The notes under the pieces were generated by a model. That model was given only the letters and a program-made list of their open reading frames with translations. It made no database searches and was not told the DNA's origin. The position numbers and the translations under genes were made by a program. Of a DNA stretch of 64,000 nucleotides, positions 7,025 through 26,526 are shown in pieces; positions within the stretch are counted from its first letter, which is position 1; each line of letters begins with the position of its first letter. This DNA comes from Strigomonas culicis (lineage: Eukaryota > Euglenozoa > Kinetoplastea > Trypanosomatida > Trypanosomatidae), in NCBI GenBank assembly GCA_000482145.1, contig AUXH01000014.1, positions 1-64,000 of the forward strand, in the 5' to 3' direction.

Positions 7025-10000
7025 ATGCATCGTGCGGTGAGTCCCAACGCAACGCTGAGCTCCTTTGTGCGTGAGTCCAGCGACAGCGGCAGCGGCAGCA
7101 GCTCCTCCGACGAGGGCATCTTCAACGAAAATGTGAAGCTGCGCCGGCGCCGGCCGCAGCCCGCCGAGGCGCGCGTTGGCGCCGCCCCGCTGCCGACCCC
7201 ATCGCCGGTCGCGATAGCCCCTCCTTCGTCGGACGGCAGCAGTCCGCGCGAGCGCAGCGTCGCCGCCGCGGAGGAGCCCGCGCTGCTGCTGTCGCAGAAG
7301 CGCCGCTCCGTCCTGTTCGACGCCCCACTCAGCCTACACGAGCCGTCGGCGCCGCCGGGCCACTCCAGCCCCAGCTCGCTCAAGAGCTCCGGCGCGCGGC
7401 GCGCGGGCCACGGCGAGGACGACCCGCCGCACGCCAGCGCGGCCAGCGGGGGCAGCCACGCCGGCCGCCGCCACCCGCGGCAGGCATCGCAAGACGACGA
7501 GGCGGGGACGGAGCACCACAGCAGCGATGGAAGCAACCACCGCCGCCACCACCACCACTCCCCCGTGCGGCCCGAGCAGGACTTTGGCGCGAGCGGCGAC
7601 GGCAGGAGCACCGTCGGCTCCGTGAGCGCGGAGCACGGGGACCTGCGTCACAGCATGCTGAACGCGCGGCAGCTCAAAGCGAAGGAGATGGAGGACGAGC
7701 AGTACCTCAAGACGTTCAAGATCAACACCATCATCTCCCACCTGTCACTGCAGCTGCTGCAGCACAAGCCGGAGGACCACGTCGAGTTCGCGCGGCAGTG
7801 GCTGCTGCAGAGCCTCGAGACCAAGCACGCGCAGAAGAAGAAGCTGCGCAGGGTGCTGACGGAGGCGAACCCGCCGTACCACCCCAGCCCCGGCGGCGGC
7901 GACAGCAGCGGCGCCGGCGAGGACAACGGGAGCAGCGGGGCCACCTCGAGGATGGCAGGCAGCCTCGCCGGTATGAGCCTCGTCGAGCGCACGGGCCGGT
8001 CGGACACGACGGAGAAGGATCTGCTGCACGCCTCCTCCAGTGGACCCCACCCGTCGCTGCCGTCGGAGGGCGCGCACGTGCCCAGCACGGCCGCGGGAGG
8101 TTCGCTCGGGGAGCGCACGGAGGGGTCCGGCAACACCACGTCCATGTCCGCGTCGTTGACGGCCGGCGAGGCGCGGCGGCACCGCAAGGCGAAGAAGCGC
8201 GCCAAGAAGCGGGAGAAGGACGCGGCGGCGCCGGTGCAGCAGGTGCCGGAGCTCAAGGCGCGCGACGGCCCTCCCAGCCCCACCCTCGGCGGCGGCGCGG
8301 AGGGCGACCCCGTCCATGCGGTGGGCATGCCGAGCCACGGCACCACGCCGCGCGGGCCGCTGCGGGACTCGGCGGACTCCGACAAGGCGGACGCGCCGCA
8401 GCGCGGCAAGACGCCGCTGCATCCCTCCTCGGAGACGGATGGCGGCAGCAGCAGCAGCTCCGCGGACGAGGCCGGCTTCGTCGCCATGCGGGAGGTGACG
8501 CGGCAGAGCACCAGCGTCTCCACCTGGACGATGGAGGGGGGCGACGCGACGCCGATCGACCAGGGCAGCACCGCCACCAAGGCGCGGCGCGACTTACCCG
8601 TCGACCTGCTCCAGACCTGCCTGCCGCACTGCTACAGCTCCGAGGCGGTCGACACCTCCATCGACAACGGCGCGGCGAAGCAGGCGAGCACCAAGGGCAG
8701 CACCGGCGATGACGACACGGATGCCACCGGGCCGCAATCGCCCTTCAACACGACGACCGCCCTGCTCCTCGTGCGCTCCCCGACCGAGGCGGAGCTGCGC
8801 GCCGACCACGCGGCGGCCGCCACGCTGCCGCACGAAGAGGCGGCGGAGCCGTCACAGCAGGAGGCGCCGGAGCTCGACGTGGCTGCCATGTTCCCCGCCC
8901 TCGCGCACATGGTGACCCAGGAGGAGACGGACTTCGCCGTCTTCGCGCCTGTGATGTCCGTCGGCGGCGACGCGCGGGTGCCCAGCCACTCGCCGAAAGA
9001 CCAGAGCACGGTGAGTGCGCCGGCCGGCCTGAGCGTCGCCGACGGGCCCTCCTCCTTCTGGGCGCGCGACGGCAACAAGGGCGCCGCGTCGCCGCTGGAC
9101 CACAGCCACCCGCCGGCCGGCCCCGGCGCCGACGCAGCCACCGCCCCGCTGGCTGCCGTGAGCAAGGCGACCAAGGACAAGAACGCGCGCGGCGCCGATT
9201 TCTTCAGCCCCGTCGCCAACACGAGCTTCGGCTTCGGCACCGGCGTCTCCCACAACACGAGCTTCGCGCGCGTCAACCTGCATGCGCTGACGGAGGGGCT
9301 CGGCGGGCCGGTGGAGGGCGCGAGCAGCCGCGCGCGCTGGCGCACCGGCACCGGCCGCGTCGTCAGCCCGATGCGGCACGGGCCGGAGGAGGAGCGCAGC
9401 GCGAGCCCCATGTCGGAGTACAGCAAGACGGGGTCCATGCGCATGTACGAGGCGGGCGAGTTCCCCTCGCAGCCGGACTTGAACCTGTCGGCCCAGGCGG
9501 CCACGAACAGCCTCAGTCTGCGGGAGGGCTCGCCCATGCCGGATGCGCCCGTGCCGCACCACTCCGCGCTCGAGTCCGAGGGGTGCCGCGCGCGCGTGCT
9601 GGACCTCATGTCGCGGCTCACGACGAACCAGTTCCTCACCACGATGAACTTCCTGACGGAGCTCGTCGAGGGCGGCAACAAGAAGGAGGAGCACCCGCCG
9701 CCGGAGCCGCTCGGCTTTTCGGCGAGCACCCCGGTGCCCAGCGCCGCTGACATCTTCGCGGCGGGGGAGGCCTCCCTGTCGGCGCGCTCGGCCAACGTGG
9801 CGGCCATCATGCGGGACGCCCTCAGCCAGAGCGTGCTGCGCTCGATCCCGTCCGACCACGAGATCCCGCAGGGCTTCCGCGGCCTGCCCCCAGCGGACAG
9901 CCGGGCGGCCTCCGCACCGCCGATGGGCCCGTCCGTCTCCGCCGGCCCCGACGCCTCTCCTGTCTCGCGGGAGGTGACAGCGCGGGTCGCGCGCGCGCCC

Positions 10001-13000
10001 TCCGTGTCCGCCTCGCAGGAGGTCGCGGCGGCGGCGGCCAACACGGTGGTCGAGGTGCGCGCCGGCAGGGGGGCGGGCGCGTCGCCGCCCGCGCCGCCGC
10101 TCTGCGCCACGGAGGAGGAGGCGCCCGTGTTCCTCTTGACGCGCGAGGCGACGGCCGAGCCCTCGTCCTTCAGCACCGACGGCGAGGAGCAGAAGGACAA
10201 GGAAGGCGACGACGAGCGGAAGCGCGATGGCACAAGGAACAAGACGCCGGAGCCGCAAACCGCGGACAGGGAAAAGGTGGAAGCGCCGCAGGGCGACGAA
10301 GCGGCGGAAGTGGACGAGGCCGAAGCGGACGCCGCGCACGGCCGCGAGCAGCCGACGGACCTGCGCCGCAGCTCGCTCACGATGGCGGCGGTCGTCAGCG
10401 ATCCGCTCGACGGCGACCACGCGGAGAGCGGGACGCCCAAGTCGATGCCGTCGATTCTGTTCCTCAGCCCTAGCAGCGGCTCCCCCACCAGCACCGCGCC
10501 GCTCAACGTGGAGGAGAAGGAAACCGCCTTCCCACAAAAGTCCCCGCTCCAGCCGCCCGCCGCGGCCCCCGCCGCCGCCGCCCACGACTTCGTCTCCACC
10601 TCCTCCGAGCCCTTCACCGCGACGTCGACGAACGACGTGGCGGTGACGGCGGCCGCGACGGCGACCAGCAGCAGCCGATGGCACAAGCTGCAGCTCCACA
10701 CGGACCCACTGGATCTCGGCCCGCCGCAGATGGAGCGCTACGAAACCCACAAGGGCTTCGGCGGTAAGCGCGGCAAGGACAGCGCCCACGTCTTCGCGAA
10801 GTCGCAGATCGACCCCATGACGCTGCTCAGTGTGCCGATGATGGAGCAGCGGTGGTCCGCGACCCCTCACGTCGAGGGGGCCCACTCCCAGCGGACGCCG
10901 AACGTGAAGCCGCGCCACTCGTCGCACCAGCGGCACAGCCACAACTACCGCCACCACACCCACAGGGGGTTTTCAGAGAGCCACTTTGGGACCATGCTGT
11001 CGTTGGCAAACAACAGCTTCGAGGCGGCTACGCCGCTGCAGTTCGCTGTCCCGCACGAGGCGAGCCGACTCACGCCGCCGGTCCTCCTCCCTGGCACCTC
11101 CAACACCGCGACGAGCGATTTTCTGTACCCAGACACGGCACTGGAGAACAATATGGTGAGTGTGAACACGTCCAGCAGCAACACGAACCAAAACAACAAC
11201 AACAACAACAACAACAATAACAATATGCACCTCTCGGATGGCCTGCGTGGCGCGTCCGCCGACAGCATGTCGGAGGTTGTGTCCGGCAAGGCGGCGACGG
11301 GGAGCGTGCCCACGGCGGCGCTTCCGGCGGACGCGGGCGAGCCCCCCACCGTCGCCCAGGCGAAGAGCAACTTCTTCAACGCCGAGGGGGGGGACCACCT
11401 CCAGGCAGACGAGCTGCAGCAGGTGCGGGACTCCTACATCCGCTTCGACGCCTTCGCGGCGCTCGACGAGACGCAGCTGGAGACGATGATCCGCTGCACC
11501 ACCCGCCACGTCTACGAGGACGGCGCCGTGCTGCTGCGGGAAGGGGAGACGGGGCAGAGCCGGCTGCTGCTCGTCCTGGCCGGCAAGCTCGTGTGCACCC
11601 GTAAAGGGCTCCTCGTGCGCGTCGTGCAGGCCGGCCAGTTCTACAGCGTCGTGGACGAGTGCTACAACTTCGACCGCTGCCGCCAGACGGTGGTGACGAG
11701 CGGCCCGACCATTGTCTACGCGCTGTCCAAGATAGACTACGAGAAGCTCATCCTCTTCGAGAAGGACGCGCGGCAGTATTTGTTTCTGCAGTACGTCAAC
11801 AAGTCCGCCTTCTTCAGTCGGCTGTCGACCGAAAACAAGATGCGCATCGCCGACGCGCTGCGGGTGTGCCGGATGCCGAAGGGGAGCGTCCTTATGCACC
11901 GCCACAGCCCCGTCGAGTGGCTGTACCTCATCATGTCCGGCGAGGTGCGGCTGACGGCGAAGATCATCAAGCCGCATCCCGGCGAGGTGGCCGCGGCGAG
12001 CACCAACAACAACAGCAACACGAGCGACCCCAACCACGAGGGCGGCGTGGACCCGACCAGCTTCGATCCGGCCTGTGTGCCCAACCAGTCCCTCCTCGAG
12101 GGCAGCACGACGGCGGGCAGGACGAAGGGGTACTCCATCACGCGGAGACCGAAGAGTGCGAAGCGCAAGACCGAGGTGATGCTCGCGACGGAGGCGGACC
12201 CCCTCACGAGCATGACCGACAGCCCGACGCCCCCCGGCGCCTCGAGCGACGCCTCTCCGCTGCTGCCACAGCAGGGACATAAGAGTAAGCGGGCCTCCGC
12301 GAACGGCAGCTTCGGCACCGGCGCCGTGTACACGCTCACGTGCGGCACGGGGCAGCTGGTGGGCGAGTGCGAGTACGTGTTTCGCAGCAAGGGCATCTTT
12401 GACGCCGTGGCCGTGACGCCGCTGCAGGTCGCGCGTATCAACCGCCTCCACCTCCAGGCGATCCTCTCGCGTCAGGCGCTCGACAGTGTGAAGTACTTCA
12501 TCGGGACGAACGAGCACTACAACTTCTTCCAGGCGGTGATGCCGGAGTCCATCCAACAGGAGGTGCGCGCGGTCATCATGCGGCGCAAGGTGGCGCGCGA
12601 CCTCTACGCGCAGCGCGAACAGCTCCTCAGCAGCAAGCGCAGCGGCCACAGCGACTCCAAGGAGCGCCGCCGGCTGATACGGCGCTCGACCATGCAGAAC
12701 GTGGCCGCCGCGAGCTGCTACTCCCCGCAGCTCTTCCACGGCAGCATCGACGGCGTGGGGAGCGGCAGCTACGTGCACGGCAGCAAGGCGGACCTCCCGC
12801 GCTCGAACACCTTGACGACGTGGAACACGGCCAACACGGAGGAGGCCGCCGACGGCCGCAGCGCCAAGCGGTCGCAGGACAAGCGGCGCCTATCCCGGTC
12901 GTCCATGCTCGGGAACGAGTTGCGCGCGAGCTCGGACGCGGTCAGCCCGGACCCCGCGAGCCCCTCGCGCGCCGCGCTGCCGACGCCGCAGGCGGGTGTG

Positions 13001-16000
13001 TCCTCGGCGTCGCGCAAGACATCGCACACGAAGAACCGGCACCCACCGCTGTCCTCGCGGCACCACTCCGGCAACGGCAAGCGCACCTCGCGCCACTCGT
13101 CGTCGCAGACCCAGGCGCGCATCAACGCGGATGGGGAGATTGTCTTCTCCGGCAGCCGCAACATGTACCGCTTCCCGGTGCGCGCGCTCCGACTCGCGAA
13201 CACGGTCTTCATCGCCGTGATCGCGGACGGCACCATCATCCGCTGGAACGCCGTCGCGCAAGAGGCAACCGGCTACGCCCCCTTTCAGGTTGTCGGACAG
13301 AACATCTTCCACTTCCTCGTTGGGAACGAGAGCCGCGACTGGCTCCGCGCGACGCTGCGGCTGGCCTCCGGCTACGCCGGGCGGTGGGACGAGTTTGTGC
13401 AGTCCAACCTCGCGGCGCCCACGCACTACACCTTTCACTGCAAGGGCAACCTCTCCACCGCGAACCTGGTGCTGTCCCCGGTCCCGTCCGTCATCAGCGC
13501 CTCGTCGGAGGTGCTGCTGCTCGTCGGCCACGAGGAGCAGTCGAAGGCGGCGAACACCTTCAACACGGACGTCGCGCTGTGGCTGCGGCAGTCCCTACAG
13601 CCGCACCTGCAGAGCTTCCAGGAGGACCTCCGGCGGCTGGAGCAGCAGGACTGGCGCTTCTCCCCCGAGCGCGCCCTCGCCCTGCGGGCCGACCTCAGCG
13701 TCTGCATGGCGATGGTGGAGCAGTACACGAACCTCTCCCAGGTCAACATGGACACCGTCTCCGAGTCGTGGAAGCCGCTGCGGCTCGTGCGGGTGGTGGA
13801 GGGCTTCCTGCCGGAGGCGAGCCACACGGTGGCCAAGGCGTGCGCGAACGGCCTCTTCAACTGCAACATCAACGAGGTGACACCCCGCGCGGAGGTGTTC
13901 ATGGACCTGAACCGCGTCATGAAGCTGCTGCGGCTGATGCTGCAGATCGCGCTTCTCACGCGCGCGGAGGGGGAGCAGCTCGTTGTCGACCTCACCGTGT
14001 CCGCGGTCGAGCCGGACATGAGCGCGGCCGCGATGGGCGGCCTCGAGCCGGCGCCCACCGCGGGCATGAGCAGCTCCTCCAGCGCACCGGTGCTGGACCA
14101 GAAGGGCAGAGGCATCGCGGTCCTGCACCACGCCGCGGCCACCGTCGACGGCGACGCACCCACCGCGGCAGCACCGGGCGACTCGCCGCTCTTCATGCCC
14201 GCGTCGCTGCCCGTCGTCGCGACGCACGGGCCCAGATCCCCGCTGGCCGACCCCACGCACAGCGCCACCGAGGCGGGGAACCGCAAGACGGTAAAGCTGC
14301 TGCCGTCGTCGCTGCGCCGCATCCGCATCCAGCTGACGTACAACGGCGCGGTCATCCCGGCCTTCGCGGACGGCAGCGGGAGGGAGGGGCGGCGGCCGGA
14401 CGCGAGCACGGCGGACCCCAGCAGTGAGTCTTCCTTTGCCGCGGACGCGCCGCCGCGCCCGGAGGAGACCCTCATCGATCAGGTGAACCACACGATGAAG
14501 TCCATGGGCGGCGTGCTGTACGGGTTCACGCGGCCGTACGTGGAGCGAAACATGCTGCGCGTGGAGCTGCCGCTGCTGGTGGTGCCCGGCGCGGCCGAGG
14601 GCGAGGACGGCATCGACAAGGGGAACAGCGCCTCGGACACGTTGCCGATGGACGGCATCGACGGCATGATGGACTTGCACCGCGGCGGCGGCGGCACGCT
14701 CGTCTCCAGCGTCGGTCGCACGGTGCTGCTGGCGGACAACAATCGCCTCGAGCAGCAGCTGCTGTGCGGCGTGCTCTGGTCGCGGCAGCACGCCGTCGTG
14801 CCGGTTAGCAGCTTCCGCGACCTCATGCGGAAGGTGCTGGAGCCCAAGGGCGCTGACATCCTGCTCATTGAGCCGCTGCAGCTCGACATCACCGCGGAGG
14901 ACTACGAGGACATCGAGGGCGACGATCCGTTCGACGACCTGCTCGCCGCGTCGATGCACATGGTGCTGGTGGTGCTCGCCACGGACTTCACCGACTGGCG
15001 TGTGCAGAAGCTGCTGGACCGCAACGGGGTCATCGAGCTGCCGAAGCTCCACTCCGCGCCGCTCGTGCACATCGCGATGCAGGAGGCGGAGCGCATGGTC
15101 GCGGAGATCCGGGAGGAGGAGGAGCGCATCGACCGCATCCGCCGCACCTTTGTGAACGCGCGCGAGGACCACCACAAGCTCGGCCGCATCATCGGCTCCG
15201 GCACGTTCGGCGATGTCTACGAGGTGGAGGATGTGCTGACCGGCGGCAAAATGGCGATGAAGCGCATGCGCATCCACGACACGCTCACCGCGGACGAGGT
15301 GCTACACGAGATCCTCGCCATGACGGCACTCCGCCACGAAAACATCATCCACTACTTCTTCTGTGAAAAAGAGAACGAGACGACGCTGCGGCTTTACATG
15401 GAGCTCGCGACGGGCGGCTCGCTACTGCAGCTCGTGCGGCGCAGCGAGGGGCAGCCCCTGCCCTTCGACCGCACGGTGCACTTCCTGACCGACCTCTGTC
15501 GCGGCCTCGCCTACGTTCACAGCCAGCACTACGTGCACGCAGACCTCAAGTCCGCGAATCTCCTACTCGACGCCCGCAACCGCCTCAAGATTGGCGACTT
15601 CGGCACCTCCAAACAGCTCCGCCCGGGCCAGAAGCTGCACAAGATGATGGGCACGCCGCTGTACATGGCGCCCGAGGTGCTCACCGCCGACGAGACCACG
15701 AAGGAGGGCGGGTACGACTTCAAGGCGGACATCTGGTCCGTCGGCTGCATCGCACTGGAGATGGCGACCGGCTGGCCGCCGTTCCACCACATCGAGAGCT
15801 CACACGGCCTCGGCATCATGAAGTACCTCAGCGACCTGGTCGAGACGCCGGACCTGTCGCCGCTGTTCCGGGGCAACCCGCTCGTGTACGAGTTTGTGAA
15901 GAGCTGCCTGGACGTGGACCCGCGCAACCGGCCGAGCGCGCAGGACCTGCTGCGCTTCGAGCTGCTGCAGGGCGCCGTCAGCAGCAAGCGCGCGGAGCGG

Positions 16001-16420
16001 ATGGTGAAACGCGCCGAGATGCTGTACAAGCTCAACAAGTACGCGGCGATGCGCGACGACGGGGCGCAGACAGACAGCCAGCGCGACAGCGCGGACAGCG
16101 AGAACAGCGGGGCACTCTTCAACGGCCACCAGAGCGGCAGCGACTACGACATGTCGCCGGCCGATGCGGCGCTGCTCGCGTACAACGACAGCGAGAACTT
16201 CGATGCCGCCGAGAGCGTCTTTTTCTCGTCCGGCTACTCGAGCAGCTACAGCGGGTCCTCCACGGCGAGCGGCAGTGGCTACACGAACAGCAGCACGGTA
16301 TCAGAGGAGGGGGAGGAGGAAGCGTTCAGCAGCGGCATGGAGGGGGACAACGAGAACAGCACGCGGCCAACGACGCCGTACCCCCCGGTGCAGCAAGGCA
16401 GGCCGGCATCCACATCATAG
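7025..16420 (+). CDS. STE-type Ser/Thr kinase fused to degenerate hybrid histidine kinase
   Basis: 3131 residues. Residues 1 to about 1470 are low-complexity Ser/Pro/Ala/Glu-rich sequence with an Asn run (about 1392-1401). Then come two cyclic-nucleotide-binding-like folds (about 1473-1590 and 1590-1826, the second split by a long insertion). Both lack the full phosphate-binding cassette with its Arg, although VGECEY in the second recalls it. A PAS domain follows (about 2049-2168, core IADGTIIRWNAVAQEATGY). Next is a decayed histidine-kinase core: ALWLRQSL (2184-2191) sits where SHELRTPL is expected, so the phospho-His is Leu2185. The N-box around 2297-2316 has lost both Asn and the Lys (Leu2304, Ile2308, Leu2311). 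A receiver-like domain (about 2568-2690) keeps Asp2571 but has Glu2616 at the phospho-Asp position. The C-terminal kinase (2719 to about 2984) has GSGTFG, Lys2746, HADLKSAN with Asp2840, DFG Asp2858 and MAPE, so it looks active. It is non-RD (Ala before Asp2840) and STE11/MAP3K-like. The role, probably signal sensing, is inferred. Confidence 0.9.
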   Translation: MHRAVSPNATLSSFVRESSDSGSGSSSSDEGIFNENVKLRRRRPQPAEARVGAAPLPTPSPVAIAPPSSDGSSPRERSVAAAEEPALLLSQKRRSVLFDAPLSLHEPSAPPGHSSPSSLKSSGARRAGHGEDDPPHASAASGGSHAGRRHPRQASQDDEAGTEHHSSDGSNHRRHHHHSPVRPEQDFGASGDGRSTVGSVSAEHGDLRHSMLNARQLKAKEMEDEQYLKTFKINTIISHLSLQLLQHKPEDHVEFARQWLLQSLETKHAQKKKLRRVLTEANPPYHPSPGGGDSSGAGEDNGSSGATSRMAGSLAGMSLVERTGRSDTTEKDLLHASSSGPHPSLPSEGAHVPSTAAGGSLGERTEGSGNTTSMSASLTAGEARRHRKAKKRAKKREKDAAAPVQQVPELKARDGPPSPTLGGGAEGDPVHAVGMPSHGTTPRGPLRDSADSDKADAPQRGKTPLHPSSETDGGSSSSSADEAGFVAMREVTRQSTSVSTWTMEGGDATPIDQGSTATKARRDLPVDLLQTCLPHCYSSEAVDTSIDNGAAKQASTKGSTGDDDTDATGPQSPFNTTTALLLVRSPTEAELRADHAAAATLPHEEAAEPSQQEAPELDVAAMFPALAHMVTQEETDFAVFAPVMSVGGDARVPSHSPKDQSTVSAPAGLSVADGPSSFWARDGNKGAASPLDHSHPPAGPGADAATAPLAAVSKATKDKNARGADFFSPVANTSFGFGTGVSHNTSFARVNLHALTEGLGGPVEGASSRARWRTGTGRVVSPMRHGPEEERSASPMSEYSKTGSMRMYEAGEFPSQPDLNLSAQAATNSLSLREGSPMPDAPVPHHSALESEGCRARVLDLMSRLTTNQFLTTMNFLTELVEGGNKKEEHPPPEPLGFSASTPVPSAADIFAAGEASLSARSANVAAIMRDALSQSVLRSIPSDHEIPQGFRGLPPADSRAASAPPMGPSVSAGPDASPVSREVTARVARAPSVSASQEVAAAAANTVVEVRAGRGAGASPPAPPLCATEEEAPVFLLTREATAEPSSFSTDGEEQKDKEGDDERKRDGTRNKTPEPQTADREKVEAPQGDEAAEVDEAEADAAHGREQPTDLRRSSLTMAAVVSDPLDGDHAESGTPKSMPSILFLSPSSGSPTSTAPLNVEEKETAFPQKSPLQPPAAAPAAAAHDFVSTSSEPFTATSTNDVAVTAAATATSSSRWHKLQLHTDPLDLGPPQMERYETHKGFGGKRGKDSAHVFAKSQIDPMTLLSVPMMEQRWSATPHVEGAHSQRTPNVKPRHSSHQRHSHNYRHHTHRGFSESHFGTMLSLANNSFEAATPLQFAVPHEASRLTPPVLLPGTSNTATSDFLYPDTALENNMVSVNTSSSNTNQNNNNNNNNNNNMHLSDGLRGASADSMSEVVSGKAATGSVPTAALPADAGEPPTVAQAKSNFFNAEGGDHLQADELQQVRDSYIRFDAFAALDETQLETMIRCTTRHVYEDGAVLLREGETGQSRLLLVLAGKLVCTRKGLLVRVVQAGQFYSVVDECYNFDRCRQTVVTSGPTIVYALSKIDYEKLILFEKDARQYLFLQYVNKSAFFSRLSTENKMRIADALRVCRMPKGSVLMHRHSPVEWLYLIMSGEVRLTAKIIKPHPGEVAAASTNNNSNTSDPNHEGGVDPTSFDPACVPNQSLLEGSTTAGRTKGYSITRRPKSAKRKTEVMLATEADPLTSMTDSPTPPGASSDASPLLPQQGHKSKRASANGSFGTGAVYTLTCGTGQLVGECEYVFRSKGIFDAVAVTPLQVARINRLHLQAILSRQALDSVKYFIGTNEHYNFFQAVMPESIQQEVRAVIMRRKVARDLYAQREQLLSSKRSGHSDSKERRRLIRRSTMQNVAAASCYSPQLFHGSIDGVGSGSYVHGSKADLPRSNTLTTWNTANTEEAADGRSAKRSQDKRRLSRSSMLGNELRASSDAVSPDPASPSRAALPTPQAGVSSASRKTSHTKNRHPPLSSRHHSGNGKRTSRHSSSQTQARINADGEIVFSGSRNMYRFPVRALRLANTVFIAVIADGTIIRWNAVAQEATGYAPFQVVGQNIFHFLVGNESRDWLRATLRLASGYAGRWDEFVQSNLAAPTHYTFHCKGNLSTANLVLSPVPSVISASSEVLLLVGHEEQSKAANTFNTDVALWLRQSLQPHLQSFQEDLRRLEQQDWRFSPERALALRADLSVCMAMVEQYTNLSQVNMDTVSESWKPLRLVRVVEGFLPEASHTVAKACANGLFNCNINEVTPRAEVFMDLNRVMKLLRLMLQIALLTRAEGEQLVVDLTVSAVEPDMSAAAMGGLEPAPTAGMSSSSSAPVLDQKGRGIAVLHHAAATVDGDAPTAAAPGDSPLFMPASLPVVATHGPRSPLADPTHSATEAGNRKTVKLLPSSLRRIRIQLTYNGAVIPAFADGSGREGRRPDASTADPSSESSFAADAPPRPEETLIDQVNHTMKSMGGVLYGFTRPYVERNMLRVELPLLVVPGAAEGEDGIDKGNSASDTLPMDGIDGMMDLHRGGGGTLVSSVGRTVLLADNNRLEQQLLCGVLWSRQHAVVPVSSFRDLMRKVLEPKGADILLIEPLQLDITAEDYEDIEGDDPFDDLLAASMHMVLVVLATDFTDWRVQKLLDRNGVIELPKLHSAPLVHIAMQEAERMVAEIREEEERIDRIRRTFVNAREDHHKLGRIIGSGTFGDVYEVEDVLTGGKMAMKRMRIHDTLTADEVLHEILAMTALRHENIIHYFFCEKENETTLRLYMELATGGSLLQLVRRSEGQPLPFDRTVHFLTDLCRGLAYVHSQHYVHADLKSANLLLDARNRLKIGDFGTSKQLRPGQKLHKMMGTPLYMAPEVLTADETTKEGGYDFKADIWSVGCIALEMATGWPPFHHIESSHGLGIMKYLSDLVETPDLSPLFRGNPLVYEFVKSCLDVDPRNRPSAQDLLRFELLQGAVSSKRAERMVKRAEMLYKLNKYAAMRDDGAQTDSQRDSADSENSGALFNGHQSGSDYDMSPADAALLAYNDSENFDAAESVFFSSGYSSSYSGSSTASGSGYTNSSTVSEEGEEEAFSSGMEGDNENSTRPTTPYPPVQQGRPASTS
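11190..11224 (+). repeat. poly-Asn (AAC/AAT) run inside coding sequence
   Basis: A run of AAC codons ending in AAT encodes eleven consecutive Asn in the kinase protein, shortly before its first cyclic-nucleotide-binding-like domain. Confidence 0.9.
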
Positions 16421-16557: not shown

Positions 16558-17020
16558 ACTGCATCTGTATGGAATGCTTCTGTACATTAGTGCACTTTGC
16601 TTTTGTCTGTGTTTTATATTGCTATTATTCTCATTGTTTTCCTTTCTCTCTTCCTTCCTTGGAAATGAAAAAAAAAACATTATAAACAGCATGTGGGTTT
16701 TTTTTTAATCAATTGTAATATGCATGCATTTGTTAATCCACCCACTTTATTAGCATAAAAAAAAAACACTGTATATGCACACAAATAATACTAATTAATT
16801 AATATCACTTATGCTTATTGAACACCTCTTCATTTTATTATTATTATTCACAACAACAAAAAAAAAACATTGTATATATGCATGCATACCACGAAACTCT
16901 GTTGCCAAGATTGCGTGCGGTCGTCCGAATACACGTACACATGTACACCCTCTGCATCTCTCCCCGCTCGCTCCTCTCCTCTGCCCACAGCAAGCACTAG
17001 ACCCGACAGAAGCATCCCTC
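16421..17020. other. spacer with (TA)n microsatellite
   Basis: About 600 bases. A GC-rich 80-base tail of the kinase 3' UTR is followed by a (TA)14 run at 16530-16557, A- and T-rich sequence and the acceptor for the next gene. The reading frame of that gene stays open upstream of 17021 (from 16811), but this part lies before the splice site and has UTR-like composition. Confidence 0.65.
16949..16990 (+). promoter_or_regulatory. trans-splice acceptor of the Misato-like gene
   Basis: A strong 40-base C/T tract (16949-16988) ends in CACAG, with AG at 16989-16990. The first in-frame ATG after it is 17021, giving a 30-base leader. This site decides the start: the in-frame ATGs upstream would be removed by splicing. 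Confidence 0.75.
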
Positions 17021-19087
17021 ATGGAAGAGCGCGAGCTCGTGACGTTGGCGCTCGGCAATTACGCGACCCTCGTGGCCGCGCAGTGGTGCAACGGCAGCTC
17101 CGCCTACGACGTGCACCACCACACGCTGTACCGCGAGTACCGCGGCGACGCCCTGCTCTGCGGCCACGTCGCGGACGACGCGACGGTGACGGCCGGCCGC
17201 GGCCAGGTCCGCCGCGTGCCGCGCGTGCTGCTGCTGGACGCGCCGCACGCCGCCACGCTGCAGGACGTGGGCCGCCTGCGGGCGGAGATGGCGGAGGCGG
17301 AGCAGCAGCGCGCGGCAGACGAGGAAGCGGAGGCGCCGCCGTCGCAGCTCCTCAAGGCCCCGGCCGCCGCGCTCACGCGTGAAGAAGAGGACCTGCACAA
17401 GCTGCTCCACTTCGCTCAGAAGAAGTGGTCCGACCGCTTTGCGCACCCACCGGAAGAGGAGGACGAAGAGGCGCAGGCGGACGAGGAGGGGGATGACGAA
17501 GAAGACGAGGAGGGGGAGCAAGACTTCTGGTACACGACCACGAAGAAGGCAGAGGACGGTGCGCCTGCCGCGGGGGCGAAGCGCAAGAAGGGGAAGCACG
17601 CCACGCCCGCCCTCTTCCGCGAGAAGGACGCGCTCGTCCCGTGGTGGCGCTACATCACGACGGGGCTGCACCCGGACAGCCTTGTCACGCTGCGGCCGCT
17701 GCCCGCCGCGGAGGGCGAGGTGCCCGCCTACCACAGCTACAGCGGCGGCAGCGGCGCCGTCGCCGGCGGGGACGACCTCTGCCTCTACGAGGACGCGCTG
17801 CGGCGCCAGCTGGAGGACGCAGACCGGCTGCAGGGCCTCCAGTGCTACGTGGACGCGGACTCCATGTTCGGCGGACTCGCGCAGCGCGTGCTGGAGAACA
17901 CGCTGGACGAGGCCGGCAGCAAGACGAGCGTCGCCGTGTGGTCCCTCTTCGCCCCGCTGCCGGCCGCCTTCTGGGACACGGCCGCCGCCGCCCACATCAA
18001 CTTCGCGGACCGCCGTCGCGAAGAGACGGTGCTGAACCGGATGCTCGCGACGGTGCAGCTGTCCGCGCCGTCCTCGGTCGTGTACACGCCCATCGAGATC
18101 AAGGACTGGCCCGCCTTCTTCCGGCTGCCGCCCGCGCACGCCGACTGGCTCGAGCACGACCCCTCGACCGCGCAGTACATCGCCGCGGTGACGGACACGG
18201 CGCTCTACGGCGTGCGCGACCGCAGCTGCGTGAGCGCGGCCGCGGCCGGGCCGGCCTACTACCTGCCGCAGTGGTGCCACACCGTGCGGCCGTCACCGTC
18301 GCTGCGCGTGGCCGCGCTGATGGGCGCGCTGCCACTGCCGCTGCAGGCCCCGCCGGCGCCCGTCCCGCATAAGCGCACGCGCGCGGAGGGCGGTGGCGCC
18401 GAGGAGCGGTCGCGGGTCGACCTCTGGGACGTGCTGACCGCGCTGCCGCTGCTTCCCGACGCGCAGCGGGCGGCCGCCGCCGCCGCGCGGCGGGACCACC
18501 GCCCGTGCGCGCCGGTGGCGCCGGGCGGCGGGCAGGGCTATGTGAGCCTCTCTCACGCGATGCGGCACCCGGTGGACAGCGAGGCGGGCCGGGTGCTGGG
18601 CCACGCCGTCAGCCTCCGCGGCGCCGGCGACCTCGCCGCGGAGACGTATGGCGCGCATGAGGCGCTGCTGCGCTACGCGCTGCCGCTGCGCACGAACCTG
18701 TACCTGCCGCTACTCACCGCCACCCCGTACCCCGTGTCGCAGACGTTCCCTGCGGAGCTGCTCGCGTGGGCGGCCGCCGACGCGACCGCGGCGGAGCGGG
18801 AGGCGGGCGCGCGGACGCAGGCGCGGGCGGCGGAGCGCGCGGGGTCGGGCGACGCCACCCTCAACGTGGCCGCACACGTGCTGTCCACGTACAACTCCTA
18901 CGACATGCTCGCGCCGCTGGCCGCGGCCGCGAAGCCGCTCGTGCGGCGCAGCACGCACCGCTACAACGCCACCTACCACATGGAGACGGAGGAGTGGCAG
19001 GAGAAGCTGGAGCAGCTGCAGGAGATCGTGGACGACTACCGACACGAAGATTATGTGGTTGAGGATAATGAGGAAGGCGACTGGTAG
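17021..19087 (+). CDS. Misato/DML1-like tubulin-related protein
   Basis: 688 residues. The N-terminus EELVTLALGNYA-like stretch (exact: MEERELVTLALGNYA), followed by QWCN, YREYRGD and PRVLLLDA, matches the Misato/DML1 family start, where the sequence runs REIVTLQxGxYxNxxGxHWWN, then a prolyl-rich strand carrying the bound-ligand loop of a tubulin-like fold. The Misato segment continues with SVAVWSLFAPLP and YTPIEIKDW (about 305-365). In fungi and animals family members act in mitochondrial distribution and morphology and in tubulin complex biogenesis. It is longer than usual (about 570 in animals) because of an acidic insertion near 140-185 and Ala-rich loops. The start at 17021 is the first ATG after a strong splice acceptor and gives the family N-terminus exactly. 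The function in trypanosomatids is inferred from the family only. Confidence 0.8.
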   Translation: MEERELVTLALGNYATLVAAQWCNGSSAYDVHHHTLYREYRGDALLCGHVADDATVTAGRGQVRRVPRVLLLDAPHAATLQDVGRLRAEMAEAEQQRAADEEAEAPPSQLLKAPAAALTREEEDLHKLLHFAQKKWSDRFAHPPEEEDEEAQADEEGDDEEDEEGEQDFWYTTTKKAEDGAPAAGAKRKKGKHATPALFREKDALVPWWRYITTGLHPDSLVTLRPLPAAEGEVPAYHSYSGGSGAVAGGDDLCLYEDALRRQLEDADRLQGLQCYVDADSMFGGLAQRVLENTLDEAGSKTSVAVWSLFAPLPAAFWDTAAAAHINFADRRREETVLNRMLATVQLSAPSSVVYTPIEIKDWPAFFRLPPAHADWLEHDPSTAQYIAAVTDTALYGVRDRSCVSAAAAGPAYYLPQWCHTVRPSPSLRVAALMGALPLPLQAPPAPVPHKRTRAEGGGAEERSRVDLWDVLTALPLLPDAQRAAAAAARRDHRPCAPVAPGGGQGYVSLSHAMRHPVDSEAGRVLGHAVSLRGAGDLAAETYGAHEALLRYALPLRTNLYLPLLTATPYPVSQTFPAELLAWAAADATAAEREAGARTQARAAERAGSGDATLNVAAHVLSTYNSYDMLAPLAAAAKPLVRRSTHRYNATYHMETEEWQEKLEQLQEIVDDYRHEDYVVEDNEEGDW

Positions 19088-19336: not shown

Positions 19337-21697
19337 ATGTCGACCTCAACGATAGAAAAGGCGCTCGCCCCCTTCCTCGTGGCGCCACCCATCTTCCACG
19401 ATGCGGCGAAGCACACCGAGGGGGACAGCCGCGCGCCGACCAGCCCGCTGGTCACACGGAAGCCCTTTGTGGCGGACGAGCTCGTGCTGATCCCGAGCCC
19501 TTTCCCCAGGCGCCGCGCCACCATCGCCATGACGGGCTGCGACCGCGTGTGCGACGCGGACTGGCTGCGGCTGCAACGCCGCGAGGACGACAGCGCGGCG
19601 CCGGTCGCACTGGCCCTGCGGCAGGAGGGGCTGTGGGACGAGGGCTACTTCGTCCATCCGACGGCCCTGCCGGTGCATGAGGGGAGGCGAGAGGGGACCG
19701 AACCGAAGAACGCGGAGGGCGACGCAGCCACACGCACCTCGAAGGCGACAGGGGCGCGCGTCGACGGGCCCTACAAGAGGGTGTCACGCACGCAAGGGAA
19801 GAACCCGTTTCAAAACCTGACGTTTATTTTTGATGAGGCTGCGACGAACTTCACGGCCGTGCTGTGCACGCTGCAGCACAACGGCCTCGGCTTCCTCTCG
19901 CATCGCAAGAACATGGTGGAGAGCAGCAACAGTCAGTTCAAGAGTAAGTGGTCCTTCAAGTACCTGAAGCGGCCGCTGCCGAGCGACTTTGTGAACATCA
20001 ACATCTACCGCTTTCAGAAGCTGAACCACCTGCCGCAGAGCGGTCGTATCAGCCGCAAGGACGAGCTGCACCAGACGCTGCTGCAGGCGCTGGCACCGCA
20101 CCGCGCGCTGTTCGACACCGCCTTTGCACACACACTCAACCGCGACGAGCGCTTCTTTCCGCTGGGGTGGCTCGTGCCGGGGGAGGCCGCCGCATGCGAG
20201 GCGGCGCTGCGCCGCGCGGACCACACGGGGCGGCTCTTCATCATGAAGCGCGTGGGGGGCACGGGCGGGCTGGACATCTCCCTCCTCCGCGCGGGGCCGT
20301 CCTTCACCCTCGCGGAGGCGCTCGCGGCCGTGCCCTCCGGCGCGGCGCCGGCCGCTGCGGTGCCGGGCGCCGCCGCCGGCCCCAAGACGTACATTGTGCA
20401 GGAATATGTCGACAACCCGTATCTCATCCACAACCACAAGTTCGACCTCCGCGTGTACGTCGTCGTCACGTCGTGCTACCCGCTGCGGATGTACATTTAT
20501 AAGGAGGGCTTGGTGCGCATCGCCACCGCGGCGTACTGCCGGGACGACGGCGGGGACCCCGCAGAAGCGGCCGCGAGCGGCGGGCTCGCCCCCATCGGCC
20601 AGCTCACCGCCCACCTGACGAACTTCACCCTCAACAAGGAGAGCGACAACTTTGCCGCTGGGGCGCCTCCCGGGCCCGCGGCGGCCGACGACTTCGCCTT
20701 CCCCTCGTACAAATGGTCCTTCGCCGCCTTGGAGGCGTACATGGAGGAGGAGAACGAGCGGCGGCGCCGCAGCGGAGCGGGCGGCACCATTGACTTCGCG
20801 GCCACAATGCAGCGCGTGCGACTGATGCTCGTCCAGGTGTTCTTGGCCATGTGCCCGCATGCGCGCGCCGCGCTGGACGACATCCACGCGAAGCAGGAGG
20901 CAAAGCCGAACGCGGACCGCCCCGCTGCTGCTGCTGCGGCGGCGGCGGCGGACGCGCCGCCGGTGGTGCTGCTGCGCCACGCGGCGCCGGTGCGGGTGGA
21001 GGCGCCGGGCCGCGTGCCCTGCACCCACCGCGGCGTCAGCCCCTACTTCCAGATCTTCGGCGTCGACGTGCTGCTGCGGTACAGGGACCAGGAGGCCTTC
21101 GAGCGCGCGCAGCGGTCGACGCCGGGGCCGGCGCCGCAGCCGCCCGCGGAGCTCTTCCCCGTGCTCCTGGAGATCAACAGCATGCCCTCCCTCAGCACCC
21201 ATTACACGCTGCTCGACCAGTGCATCAAGGGCAACGTCGTCGCGGACGCGCTCACGCTGGCCGGTCTCACCTCGCCGTTTATCAAGCCCTCCCCCGCCGG
21301 GCCCAGAGGCGCGGAGCCGGCGGGCGCTGACGCGGAGGCCGGGAAGAAGCCCGCCGCCTCTCCCCATGCACCGGTCCTCCGCCCATCGCAGAGAGCCTTT
21401 CTGCAACAGTTTGTGTCTCCGCGTGCTGACGCAGCTGACGAAACGGCGGATGCGCTGGAGGTGCCGGACTCACTCGTTGCCGATGCGTGCATGACGCTGG
21501 AGGAGGAGCGGCAACGGGCGGGGAACTTCGACTGTGTGTTTCCGTCGAAGGACGCGGTGGCGCTGTTCGCGCCGCGCGGCGGGCAGGCGGCCGCGGACAG
21601 CGGGGACGGGGCCCCGTACGTGCGGTACGACAACGAGGCACTGCTGACCCCACTGGACTACATTCTCTGTGAGTGGGAGAATCTGCGCGGCGAGTAG
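19337..21697 (+). CDS. tubulin tyrosine ligase-like (TTLL) glutamylase/ligase
   Basis: 786 residues with the ATP-grasp core of the tubulin tyrosine ligase-like family, which adds Glu, Gly or Tyr to tubulin tails. Visible markers in order: NHLPQSGRISRKDEL (about 237-252), equivalent to the family's N-h-FP-x-x-x-x-l-T-K-D; FIMKRVGGTGGLDI with Lys304 (nucleotide-binding strand and loop); VQEYVDNPYLIHNHKFDLRV (about 355-375); LTNFTLNK; and VLLEINSMPSL with Glu612 and Asn614, the magnesium ligands. These are all the key ATP-grasp residues, so activity is likely. HNHKFDLRVYV is the family's K-F-D-x-R motif. Family subgroup (initiating or elongating glutamylase) cannot be told by eye. Low-complexity Ala/Pro loops separate the motifs, and residues 1-150 and 650-786 are lineage-specific extensions. 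Expected to act on axonemal or subpellicular microtubules (inference). Confidence 0.88.
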   Translation: MSTSTIEKALAPFLVAPPIFHDAAKHTEGDSRAPTSPLVTRKPFVADELVLIPSPFPRRRATIAMTGCDRVCDADWLRLQRREDDSAAPVALALRQEGLWDEGYFVHPTALPVHEGRREGTEPKNAEGDAATRTSKATGARVDGPYKRVSRTQGKNPFQNLTFIFDEAATNFTAVLCTLQHNGLGFLSHRKNMVESSNSQFKSKWSFKYLKRPLPSDFVNINIYRFQKLNHLPQSGRISRKDELHQTLLQALAPHRALFDTAFAHTLNRDERFFPLGWLVPGEAAACEAALRRADHTGRLFIMKRVGGTGGLDISLLRAGPSFTLAEALAAVPSGAAPAAAVPGAAAGPKTYIVQEYVDNPYLIHNHKFDLRVYVVVTSCYPLRMYIYKEGLVRIATAAYCRDDGGDPAEAAASGGLAPIGQLTAHLTNFTLNKESDNFAAGAPPGPAAADDFAFPSYKWSFAALEAYMEEENERRRRSGAGGTIDFAATMQRVRLMLVQVFLAMCPHARAALDDIHAKQEAKPNADRPAAAAAAAAADAPPVVLLRHAAPVRVEAPGRVPCTHRGVSPYFQIFGVDVLLRYRDQEAFERAQRSTPGPAPQPPAELFPVLLEINSMPSLSTHYTLLDQCIKGNVVADALTLAGLTSPFIKPSPAGPRGAEPAGADAEAGKKPAASPHAPVLRPSQRAFLQQFVSPRADAADETADALEVPDSLVADACMTLEEERQRAGNFDCVFPSKDAVALFAPRGGQAAADSGDGAPYVRYDNEALLTPLDYILCEWENLRGE

Positions 21698-23889: not shown

Positions 23890-24327
23890 TCCAGCTAGTT
23901 AAACGTGAGTGAGTGAGAGAGGTTGTAATTGTTTTTTGGTGTTGTTTTGTGCAATGGGGCATCGCAAAGAAAAACTTCTTGCTCTTACCATTCTTATACC
24001 TTGCTCCTGCACATTGCATTCACGGTTTCCTGTCACATTATATCAATTGTTTTCTTTTTCTGTTTTCATGTTTATTTGTTTCCCTCGAGCCATTATATCG
24101 CTTAGCCATGCATCACCAGTAAATCCAAATCGCGTTGTCTTTTCCCTCCCACTCCTCTTTGTTCTGTTTTCTTTTAGTCTATATCGTTGAGTTTCCGTTG
24201 CTTTTTTTTATTATTTCTTGTCATTACCAATAGTTTGTGTTTGGTCTTATACACATATACCAGTGTGATTGCACTTATTTCCATCTGTATCGTACTTTCC
24301 CCTACTCGCTGCCACTTGCACGTGAAA
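23890..24327. other. spacer, T-rich
   Basis: About 440 bases of 3' UTR-like T-rich sequence followed by the acceptor of the NSF gene. The small open frames at 23909-24190 are not credible genes. Confidence 0.65.
24137..24177 (+). promoter_or_regulatory. trans-splice acceptor of the NSF gene
   Basis: A nearly pure T/C tract (24137-24175) ends in TTTTAG, with AG at 24176-24177. A second possible AG is at about 24230. Either leaves no upstream ATG before 24328. The frame is open upstream to 24187, but only from a TTG, so 24328 is the start. Confidence 0.75.
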
Positions 24328-26526
24328 ATGACGAGCTACTTTCTCGTGTGCTCCGTCCCGTCGGACGATGACACCAAGTCGAACAACATCTTTCTGAACC
24401 CGGCCGACTACAAGCAGAGCATCGCGGCCGCCGCCCAGGGCTTCGTGATGGTCAATCAGTACCCCTTTGTCGTGAAGCCGCACCCCAACGTGCCGGCCGG
24501 CAGCATCGCCTTGAACGGCATCCAGCGCCGCATGCTGAACCTGTCGACGGCGGCGGGCAGCACGGTGAGCCTGCAGCCGATGGCGTCGCCCAAGCAGCCC
24601 GCCATCGTGCAGCTGAATTTCCGTGTGGAGCACTTCGTGGCCAGCAAGAAGGGCGGCGCGATCGACTGCGTGGAGTTCACGAAGGACGTGCACAAGTTCT
24701 TCAACGGCCAGGTTCTGCGCGACACGCAACAACTCGCGGTCGTGATGACGAACGGCATGCGGCTGCTGGCGACGCTGGAGGGCCTGATGCTGGACCCCAG
24801 CGTGCCCACCAAGACGGACGACATGGGTCTCTTCACCAACAACGCGGTCGTGCTCGTGACGACGACGGAGAAGAGCGAGATCACGCTCACGAACGTGTCG
24901 GAGAAGCAGCTGGACGCGCAGCAGAGTAGCATCGTGCAGGACTTCGATCTCGAGAACCTCGGCATCGGCGGTCTGCACGCGGAGTTCGGCCAAGTGTTCC
25001 GCCGCGCCTTTGCGAGTCGCATCTTCCCCGCCTCCTACGTGAAGAAGCTCGGCATCAAGCACGTGAAGGGCGTGCTGCTCTTCGGCCCGCCGGGCACCGG
25101 CAAGACGCTCATCGCCCGGAAGATCGGCGAGATCCTCAAGTGCCACGAGCCGAAGATTGTGAACGGCCCGGAGGTCTTCAGCAAGTACGTCGGCGGCACG
25201 GAGGAGAACATCCGGAAGCTCTTCGCTGACGCGGAGGCGGAGCAGGCCTCCAAGGGCGACCAGTCCCAGCTGCACCTCGTCATCTTCGACGAGTTCGATG
25301 CCATCTGTAAGCAGCGCGGTGCCGTCCGCGACTCCACCGGCGTGAACGACAACGTCGTCAACCAGCTCCTCTCCAAGATCGACGGTGTGAACTCGCTCAA
25401 CAATGTGCTGCTGATCGGCATGACGAACCGCAAGGACCTCATCGACGAGGCCATCCTGCGGCCGGGCCGCTTTGAGGTGCACGTCGAGATCGGACTGCCG
25501 GATGAGCCGGGCCGCTTCGAGATCTTCCGCATCCACACGCGCGGCATGCGGGACAACAAGGTGATGGCCAGCGACGTCAACCTGGAGGAGCTCGCCGCGC
25601 TGACGAAGAACTACTCCGGTGCCGAGATCGAGGGTGTGGTGCGCGCGGCCACGTCGAACGCGTTCAACCGCCACATGGACCGCGACCACCCCGGCAAGGT
25701 GGTGGACCCCGACAACATCTTCATCGGCCACGCGGACTTCATGGCCGCGATCGACGAGGTGACGCCCGCGTTCGGCCAGGCCAAGGAGGAGTGCGCGAAC
25801 CTGAAGCGCGGCGGCATCCTCGAGTACGGCCCCATGTGGGAGGCGGTCAAGTCGCGCTGTCAGCGCTACGTGCAGCAGCTGAACAGCGACGGCAAGCGCA
25901 TCCAATCGCTGTCGGTGCTCATCGACGGCCCCACCGGCTGCGGCAAGTCCGCGACCGCGGCCTACCTGGCCGAGCTCGCCGGCTTCCCCTACGTGAAGGT
26001 CATCTCGAGCGAGGACATGGTCGGCTACGGCGAGGCGCAGAAGGTGAACATCATCCGCAAGTCGTTCGAGGACGCGTACAAGTCCCCGGCGAGCTGTATC
26101 GTGCTGGACGACCTGGAGCGTCTCATTGAGTTCTCGCAGCTCGGCGGGCGCTACAGCAACGCGCTGTTGCAGGCGCTTCTCGTGCTCGTGAAGAGGCCGC
26201 CGCCGGAGAACAAGAAGCTGCTCATCATCGGCACCACGTCGCAGCACGACATCATGGACAGCCTCGAGCTGGTCTCTTGCTTCGCGGTGAAGCTACAGGT
26301 GCCGCTGCTGCAGGCCGACGCGCTGCCCATCGTCGCCGCGCAGATGGGTATCCAGTTCGCGACCCGGCAGGACGCGTCCAGCTGCATGGACCTCTTCCCC
26401 CGCGCGCTGCCGCTGCGGCAGCTCATGCTGCTGCTCGAGACCGCGGCGGAGAGTGTCAACGGTGGCAAGCCCGTCGTCACGTACCAGTCCTTCCAGCAGT
26501 CGCTCGAGTCTGCGGGTATTTACTGA
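24328..26526 (+). CDS. NSF: N-ethylmaleimide-sensitive factor (NSF/Sec18) AAA+ ATPase
   Basis: 732 residues, close to the normal length of about 745. NSF is the hexameric ATPase that takes apart SNARE complexes after membrane fusion throughout the secretory and endocytic system. Residues 1 to about 200 form the N domain, which binds SNAP and SNARE. The D1 AAA domain has Walker A GPPGTGKT at 253-260 and Walker B LVIFDEFDA (about 325-333). The conserved DGVNSLNNVLLIGMTNR stretch and the arginine-finger region RPGRFEVHVEIGLPD follow. The D2 domain has Walker A GPTGCGKS at 534-541 and IVLDDLERL with the DD in place of DE, as usual in NSF D2, which mainly holds the hexamer together. Start at the first ATG after the strong acceptor. 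All expected catalytic residues are present and nothing is odd. Confidence 0.95.
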   Translation: MTSYFLVCSVPSDDDTKSNNIFLNPADYKQSIAAAAQGFVMVNQYPFVVKPHPNVPAGSIALNGIQRRMLNLSTAAGSTVSLQPMASPKQPAIVQLNFRVEHFVASKKGGAIDCVEFTKDVHKFFNGQVLRDTQQLAVVMTNGMRLLATLEGLMLDPSVPTKTDDMGLFTNNAVVLVTTTEKSEITLTNVSEKQLDAQQSSIVQDFDLENLGIGGLHAEFGQVFRRAFASRIFPASYVKKLGIKHVKGVLLFGPPGTGKTLIARKIGEILKCHEPKIVNGPEVFSKYVGGTEENIRKLFADAEAEQASKGDQSQLHLVIFDEFDAICKQRGAVRDSTGVNDNVVNQLLSKIDGVNSLNNVLLIGMTNRKDLIDEAILRPGRFEVHVEIGLPDEPGRFEIFRIHTRGMRDNKVMASDVNLEELAALTKNYSGAEIEGVVRAATSNAFNRHMDRDHPGKVVDPDNIFIGHADFMAAIDEVTPAFGQAKEECANLKRGGILEYGPMWEAVKSRCQRYVQQLNSDGKRIQSLSVLIDGPTGCGKSATAAYLAELAGFPYVKVISSEDMVGYGEAQKVNIIRKSFEDAYKSPASCIVLDDLERLIEFSQLGGRYSNALLQALLVLVKRPPPENKKLLIIGTTSQHDIMDSLELVSCFAVKLQVPLLQADALPIVAAQMGIQFATRQDASSCMDLFPRALPLRQLMLLLETAAESVNGGKPVVTYQSFQQSLESAGIY

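What the first reader, a model, noticed from the sequence alone, without database searches (positions are those of the whole stretch)
13170..15980. Decayed hybrid histidine kinase fused to an apparently active Ser/Thr kinase
In one protein, PAS, histidine-kinase phosphotransfer region, ATPase-like region and receiver-like region lie in exactly the order of a bacterial or fungal hybrid histidine kinase, followed directly by an STE-type kinase. Seen in the sequence: phospho-His replaced by Leu2185 in ALWLRQSL, N-box Asn and Lys lost at 2304/2308/2311, receiver phospho-Asp replaced by Glu2616 with Asp2571 kept, while the Ser/Thr kinase keeps Lys2746, Asp2840 and Asp2858. Known: trypanosomatids lack classical two-component phosphorelay. 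Inference: an ancestral sensor kinase was captured as a regulatory scaffold and its chemistry abandoned, with Glu2616 perhaps mimicking a permanently phosphorylated receiver. RDK1-type STE11 kinases of trypanosomes may be relatives; I could not compare.
Basis: partly seen in the sequence, partly recalled or inferred. Interest (0 to 1): 0.85.

Follow-up and report, generated by a model that had tools for sequence, protein, structure and literature searches.

The report
Kinase carrying a dead bacterial-type sensor
This single-celled parasite relative makes a giant protein kinase that still carries the worn-down parts of a bacterial-style sensor kinase, an arrangement already published for a sister protein, and its relatives show which parts were lost and which are still kept.

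The parts
7025..16420 (+). Single ORF, 3131 aa; whole kinase
11507..11752 (+). CNB-A (residues 1495-1576), resembles trypanosomatid PKA regulatory subunit; ribose-binding motif degenerate
   Evidence: Pfam 8.2e-10; PDB PKAR 6h4g 4.8e-14, 6flo 1.2e-13 for 1480-1840
11819..12535 (+). CNB-B (about 1599-1837, limits set by eye), split by a long insertion; keeps GECE at 1780
   Evidence: two stretches (the second weak, i-E 0.34); motif
13172..13540 (+). PAS domain (about 2050-2172)
   Evidence: Pfam 6.6e-5; model strands and helices; PAS-only Foldseek rows
13544..13738 (+). DHp-like pair of long helices (2175-2207, 2214-2238); His position = Gln2189 at 13589-13591
   Evidence: model; alignments to P0188
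13748..14584 (+). CA / GHKL ATPase-like domain (about 2242-2520); N-box Asn -> Ile2308, G1 Asp -> Tyr2439
14030..14311 (+). Low-confidence insertion (2336-2429) inside the CA domain
   Evidence: pLDDT under 50 at model 297-390 and 298-389
14717..15094 (+). Receiver domain (about 2565-2690): D2571, N2572, E2616 (14870-14872, GAG), L2651, K2674
15056..15157 (+). Continuous helix 2678-2711: end of the receiver running towards the kinase domain
   Evidence: model H639-672
15179..15955 (+). STE-type Ser/Thr kinase (2719-2977) with K2746, D2840, D2858; HAD in place of HRD
   Evidence: Pfam 4.5e-57; closest PDB sequences MAP3K5/ASK1, MINK1, MAP4K3 at about 1e-36

Best explanation
It is a soluble relative of the 'dual ancestor' kinases of kinetoplastids: a hybrid-histidine-kinase cassette (PAS-DHp-CA-REC), preceded by a CNB pair resembling the PKA regulatory subunit and followed by a STE/MAP3K-type kinase. 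Shown: the predicted folds, their order, and loss of His, N-box Asn and G1 Asp. Inferred: the cassette no longer transfers phosphate from His. It works as a dimeric scaffold: ligand or conformational changes in CNB/PAS alter the DHp helix bundle, move the receiver, and through the receiver's last helix, continuous with the kinase leader, switch the STE kinase on or off, much as degenerate histidine-kinase modules pass signals in plant phytochromes (recalled analogy). In this species the receiver is itself a pseudo-receiver (Asp57, Asp13 and Thr87 lost); in the sister set it may still be phosphorylated or bind Mg.
For: Structure and fold matches; profile hits to histidine kinases and receivers; profile-profile matches with reversed controls; Pfam HATPase_c above cut-off in 8 of 15 relatives scanned: P0083, P0087, P0092, P0100-P0103, P0188; His box in P0188; continuous helix 2678-2711; CNB match to PKAR; mean pairwise identity of 21 members: kinase 0.73, receiver 0.62, PAS 0.59, DHp 0.54, CA 0.46 and 0.42, so the receiver is the best-kept part of the cassette; published sister DAK.
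Against: No experiment on this protein. The gating step is not tested; domain placing in a single-chain model with pTM 0.48 is no evidence of contacts, and dimerisation was not modelled. The 15 relatives gave no HisKA hit, not even P0188, and no Response_reg hit above cut-off (best 0.045). 7 of the 15 had no HATPase_c above cut-off, and most of the 8 that did were picked because the listing already showed it. The sister profile matches the window family's DHp-CA or CA only over 76 columns at 78.5-83.5%. VIA tested CA and receiver; PAS and DHp were barely tested there. Only one sequence carries Glu2616, with no reads to check it. The window gene has a long branch (0.63, own paralog 0.27), so some losses may be relaxed constraint.
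Confidence: 0.6

Rival explanations
1. The receiver is still a working switch in this family: an unknown donor phosphorylates it, or it senses Mg, and the Glu of the window is a natural locked-on version.
For: Asp57 in 23 of 24 and Lys109 in 24 of 24 window-family rows; near-complete receiver set in the sister proteins.
Against: Asp13 (N/S/R/K in 23 of 24, one gap) and Thr87 (M/Y/L/V/I in 24 of 24) are lost in the window family; no donor known; Glu2616 seen in one sequence.
Confidence: 0.2
2. The cassette is relaxed, decaying baggage in the window lineage and the kinase is controlled by its long disordered parts or partners.
For: Long branch; CA 26-29% identical to P0008, P0010 and P0018 against 68-70% for the kinase, though that CA range includes the low-confidence insertion; PAS has 3 of 20 otherwise invariant columns changed, against 0-2 of 17-19 in five yardstick rows; G1 Asp and Asp57 changed here.
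Against: Open frame of 3131 aa; receiver 66-67% identical to P0008/P0010, close to the kinase; of 19 receiver columns invariant in 22 others only D2616E changed.
Confidence: 0.15
3. The CA-like module has turned into a Ser/Thr phosphotransferase or nucleotide sensor of its own, as in PDK-type mitochondrial kinases (recalled, and described in Parsons 2005).
For: GHKL fold kept; ATPase boxes good in diplonemid-type and PhF_6 relatives.
Against: In the window N-box Asn and G1 Asp are gone; nucleotide binding unlikely here.
Confidence: 0.05

Closest known systems
DAK, dual ancestor kinase, Tb927.9.3120 and orthologs (Jensen et al. 2021, PMC8519429; abstract, passages, sections 12 and 15 seen)
   Same: PAS-DHp-CA-REC cassette followed by a eukaryotic kinase; phospho-His mutated; reported by its authors in T. 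cruzi, L. major and Bodo orthologs.
   Different: DAK has predicted transmembrane segments, its kinase at 737-980, and keeps the receiver Asp; no CNB pair is mentioned in what was seen. The window protein has no strongly hydrophobic segment, two CNB domains, and Glu at the Asp position.
LmjF15.1200 (Parsons et al. 2005, PMC1266030; passages seen)
   Same: Very large STE kinase with two cNMP-related domains and a PAS domain.
   Different: Histidine kinase and receiver parts are not named for it in the passages seen.
Plant phytochromes
   Same: Top Foldseek rows and top profile rows, mainly through PAS; degenerate histidine-kinase-related module (recalled).
   Different: No receiver, no STE kinase; light-sensing core (recalled).
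ShkA, bacterial hybrid kinase (6qrj)
   Same: DHp-CA-REC collinear in profile and matched in structure.
   Different: The entry title gives an AMPPNP-bound protein, i.e. a usable ATP site; no STE kinase.
Kinetoplastid PKA regulatory subunit (eLife 2024, PMC10959531; passages seen)
   Same: Closest solved relative of the CNB pair.
   Different: By a motif search both ribose-binding glutamates are kept in 22 of 29 sister proteins and one in 7 of 29; the window has only GECE in site B.

Membership tests
Hybrid histidine kinase | PAS, DHp, CA, REC in this order | tested here: met
   DHp rests on the predicted helices and profile, not on the VIA rows
Hybrid histidine kinase | Phospho-accepting His in the DHp | tested here: not met
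   Gln2189; no His at that column in 24 of 24 window-family rows. His in 2 of 41 rows of the wider set: P0188, and P0090, perhaps by chance
Hybrid histidine kinase | N-box Asn and G1 Asp of the ATP site | tested here: not met
   I2308, Y2439
Hybrid histidine kinase | Receiver Asp57 | tested here: not met
   E2616; Asp in the other 23 of 24 rows
DAK (dual ancestor kinase) | Hybrid-HK cassette directly before a eukaryotic kinase | tested here: met
DAK (dual ancestor kinase) | Transmembrane segments | tested here: not met
   no 19-residue window above 1.8 on the Kyte-Doolittle scale in P0001; present in L027 and L028; TMHMM not run
DAK (dual ancestor kinase) | Orthology to Tb927.9.3120 | tested here: inconclusive
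   DAK sequence was not at hand. Own L027 (1026 aa) has its kinase at 741-988 (735-982 in the slice), near DAK's 737-980; own L028 is collinear with the diplonemid-type/PhF_6 profile at 93.6%
STE-group protein kinase, active | Catalytic Lys, HxD Asp, DFG Asp | tested here: met
   kept in 24, 23 and 23 of 24 rows, one row gapped
RDK1 | TMD and cyclase-like domain | tested here: not met
   no cyclase hit, no TM-like segment; RDK1 layout
Nucleoside-binding kinetoplastid CNB | Glu in both ribose-binding cassettes | tested here: not met
   site A degenerate, site B GECE only; binding itself not testable here

The most novel reading that the evidence does not exclude
The soluble branch is a nucleoside-gated MAP3K-like kinase whose receiver is an orphan phospho-switch: in the sister proteins CNBs with the ribose-binding glutamates sense purine nucleosides while a chemically near-complete receiver, with no phospho-His to feed it in the same chain, directly gates a eukaryotic kinase; the window's Glu2616 would be a natural locked version. 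PhF_6 still carries a His-bearing hybrid kinase fused to the same kinase.
Probability: 0.12. Interest if true: 0.85.

Novelty: new variant of a known kind. Interest (0 to 1): 0.55.

Why it matters
It shows a bacterial-type phosphorelay module turned step by step into a regulator of a eukaryotic kinase: His still present in one PhF_6 relative, good ATPase boxes in four diplonemid-type relatives, receiver acids kept in one kinetoplastid branch, nearly all chemistry gone in the window protein. The trail now reaches diplonemids, beyond the bodonid-trypanosomatid ancestor named in 2021. Deletion of LmxM.15.1200, probably an ortholog of the own paralog L013 (inference), is reported in a review to give a loss of fitness in establishing sand fly infection (PMC7618733, passage seen; the main text of the screen, PMC7902614, does not hold that gene name). 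The review calls the gene unique to Leishmania; T. cruzi relatives were found here. So the family's role can be tested in the organism.

Tried and rejected
Pfam on the window protein alone: no HisKA, HATPase_c or Response_reg; PF00072 over the own genome: 0 matches; PF02518: 7 places, none on C14 or C402. Plain domain searches miss the cassette here.

RDK1 as relative: rejected on its published layout. Leu2185 as the phospho-His position: rejected by two alignments with P0188. Glu2616 as a conserved phosphomimic: rejected. A sequencing or assembly error at the GAG codon cannot be excluded.

One search counts for the window family were spoiled by wrong anchors (P0001 and P0021 among them) and are not used; one search replaces them. 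Its counts for the 29-protein sister set and its motif lists are used. That set includes P0096, which the trees put nearer the window family (support 90-91, open forks). One search's profile part printed nothing useful and was repeated: L028 matched the diplonemid-type/PhF_6 profile at 93.6% but the window and sister profiles only at 16.9% and 12.7%; L027 matched only over its PAS (11-46%), so its cassette is undecided. The slices used for L027 and L028 lack their first 6 and 16 residues.

Foldseek whole-chain rows for the cassette have rmsd 18-31 for multi-domain hits; VIA rows 8vc9, 6qrj, 8isi and similar also have high rmsd, so only single-domain rows are leaned on. The fold search with the kinase included listed kinase entries in the 50 rows shown (two titles do not say).

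Rows left out: P0002 and P0003 are not in the, 82 counts (24 rows); P0017 is left out of the invariant counts, and P0001, P0017 and P0026 of the pairwise identities; the two own membrane-type rows and P0097 of the tree. each took 46 chosen sequences. The protein searches were capped: one search scored 7981 candidates, one search listed 120 of 271, one search listed 14. Trees are quick ones with SH-aLRT only.

Papers: 8 searches, 10 papers opened, by passages or sections. Of those opened only Jensen 2021 describes such a cassette. One search listed 20 of 58 papers, 10 of 767; listed papers not opened were judged by title. PMC4561360 and PMC11006142 held none of the terms sought.

Full report
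WHAT IS THERE. The window is part of an assembly of 17.7 Mb in 670 contigs with 139 Pkinase matches. Its longest ORFs lie on the + strand and the best relatives of this one are in Leishmania, Leptomonas, Porcisia, Lotmaria, Phytomonas and Trypanosoma, which marks it as a trypanosomatid. The species is not known. The ORF 7025-16420 encodes 3131 aa. Pfam sees the kinase, a cNMP domain and PAS, and nothing between PAS and kinase.

SEQUENCE. The A2 profile hits PDB histidine kinases and receivers; it holds better-kept relatives. The window-family profile matches the diplonemid-type/PhF_6 profile in PAS 98.6%, DHp-CA 98.2%, CA 97.3% and REC 99.0%, and the sister profile in PAS 99.7% and REC 99.4%, but in DHp-CA only 78.5% and in CA 83.5%, both over 76 columns; controls were 0.2-6.5%. 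Of 15 relatives scanned 8 carry HATPase_c above the Pfam cut-off, 0 HisKA and 0 Response_reg above cut-off.

PARALOGS. The own genome holds L013 (C402, 2136 aa), with the same layout and two CNBs, and two membrane-type PAS-kinases: L028 (975 aa), collinear with the diplonemid-type/PhF_6 profile at 93.6%, and L027 (1026 aa), of which only the PAS and kinase are supported. L027's kinase (741-988) lies near DAK's coordinates (737-980). Quick trees put the 16 window-family rows in one clade (100) and L013 with Leishmania, Trypanosoma, Phytomonas and Bodo proteins in another (100); P0027 and P0096 sit beside the window family on open forks, P0188 beside the other side at 82-83 with a long branch.

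WHICH RESIDUES ARE LOST. Window family (24 rows): His position G13 E3 D3 S2 N2 Q1; N-box D20 E2 I1 S1; G1 Asp D19 and five others; receiver acid 12 D22 E1 gap1; acid 13 N12 S6 R4 K1 gap1; Asp57 D23 E1; Thr87 M16 Y5 L1 V1 I1; Lys109 K24. Sister set (29 rows): first acid E29; second acid D22 E3 Q2 S1 T1; Asp57 D29; Thr87 T29; Lys109 K28 Q1. The four diplonemid-type rows keep N and G1 boxes without His. P0188 (PhF_6) keeps His, Pro, N and G1 boxes but has Asn at Asp57. On the 41-row tree the fewest changes are His 2, N-box 2, G1 5, Asp57 4, all read from the alignment; its diplonemid-type Asp57 letters (E, S, E, D) depend on the alignment, since one search aligns Asp in all four.

CNB PAIR. L013's pair matches trypanosome PKAR at 5.9e-51, the window's at 4.8e-14 to 2.4e-13, P0188's at 4e-50. 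The eLife 2024 passages explain that a glutamate in place of Ala and loss of Arg turn PKAR to nucleosides. In the sister set both GELE motifs occur in 22 of 29 proteins and one in 7 of 29; the window keeps one related motif. Nucleoside binding by these kinases is a prediction.

MECHANISM. Shown: order, predicted folds, residue losses, a predicted helix running from the receiver towards the kinase. Inferred: dimer scaffold and gating. HAD in place of HRD (R in only 4 of 24) would fit control by something other than activation-loop phosphorylation; that link is recalled knowledge.

NOVELTY. The idea of the finding is in print for DAK. What I did not find in the searches named is the CNB-bearing soluble branch described as carrying the cassette, its diplonemid relatives, or the His-bearing PhF_6 protein. 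That PhF_6 is a prokinetoplastid and that Hpha in P0100 and P0103 is the diplonemid Hemistasia are recalled, not from a call; Diplonema is named in the listing for P0102; the organism of P0101 is not named and is grouped here by the tree.

Noticed in passing
window 16811-19087, 19337-21697, 24187-26526, 34091-39349, 52905-55238 (+): Neighbours: Tubulin_3-domain protein, tubulin-tyrosine-ligase family, AAA ATPase, TruD-like pseudouridine synthase, DEAD helicase; ordinary one-strand gene cluster (9 of the long + strand ORFs scanned, 3 without any hit).
   Followed up: partly
L030 538-2121 (+), G000:C451: PAS domain directly fused to a phosphoglycerate-kinase-like sequence (PAS; the kinase part read by eye).
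   Followed up: no
L028 893-3820 (+) and L027 680-3760 (-), G000:C103 and C56: Two further membrane-type PAS kinases; one collinear with the histidine-kinase cassette of the diplonemid-type profile, the other only in PAS.
   Followed up: partly
P0090, T. vivax sister-set protein: A His stands at the aligned phospho-His column (FLIHQVS) although its relatives lack it; may be chance or a return.
   Followed up: no
window about 7751-7819 (residues 243-265): Weak RIIa (PKA regulatory dimerisation) hit, E 0.036, below cut-off; of interest because the CNB pair is PKAR-like.
   Followed up: no
window 14030-14311: Low-confidence insertion inside the ATPase-like domain between its N- and G1-box parts.
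   Followed up: no
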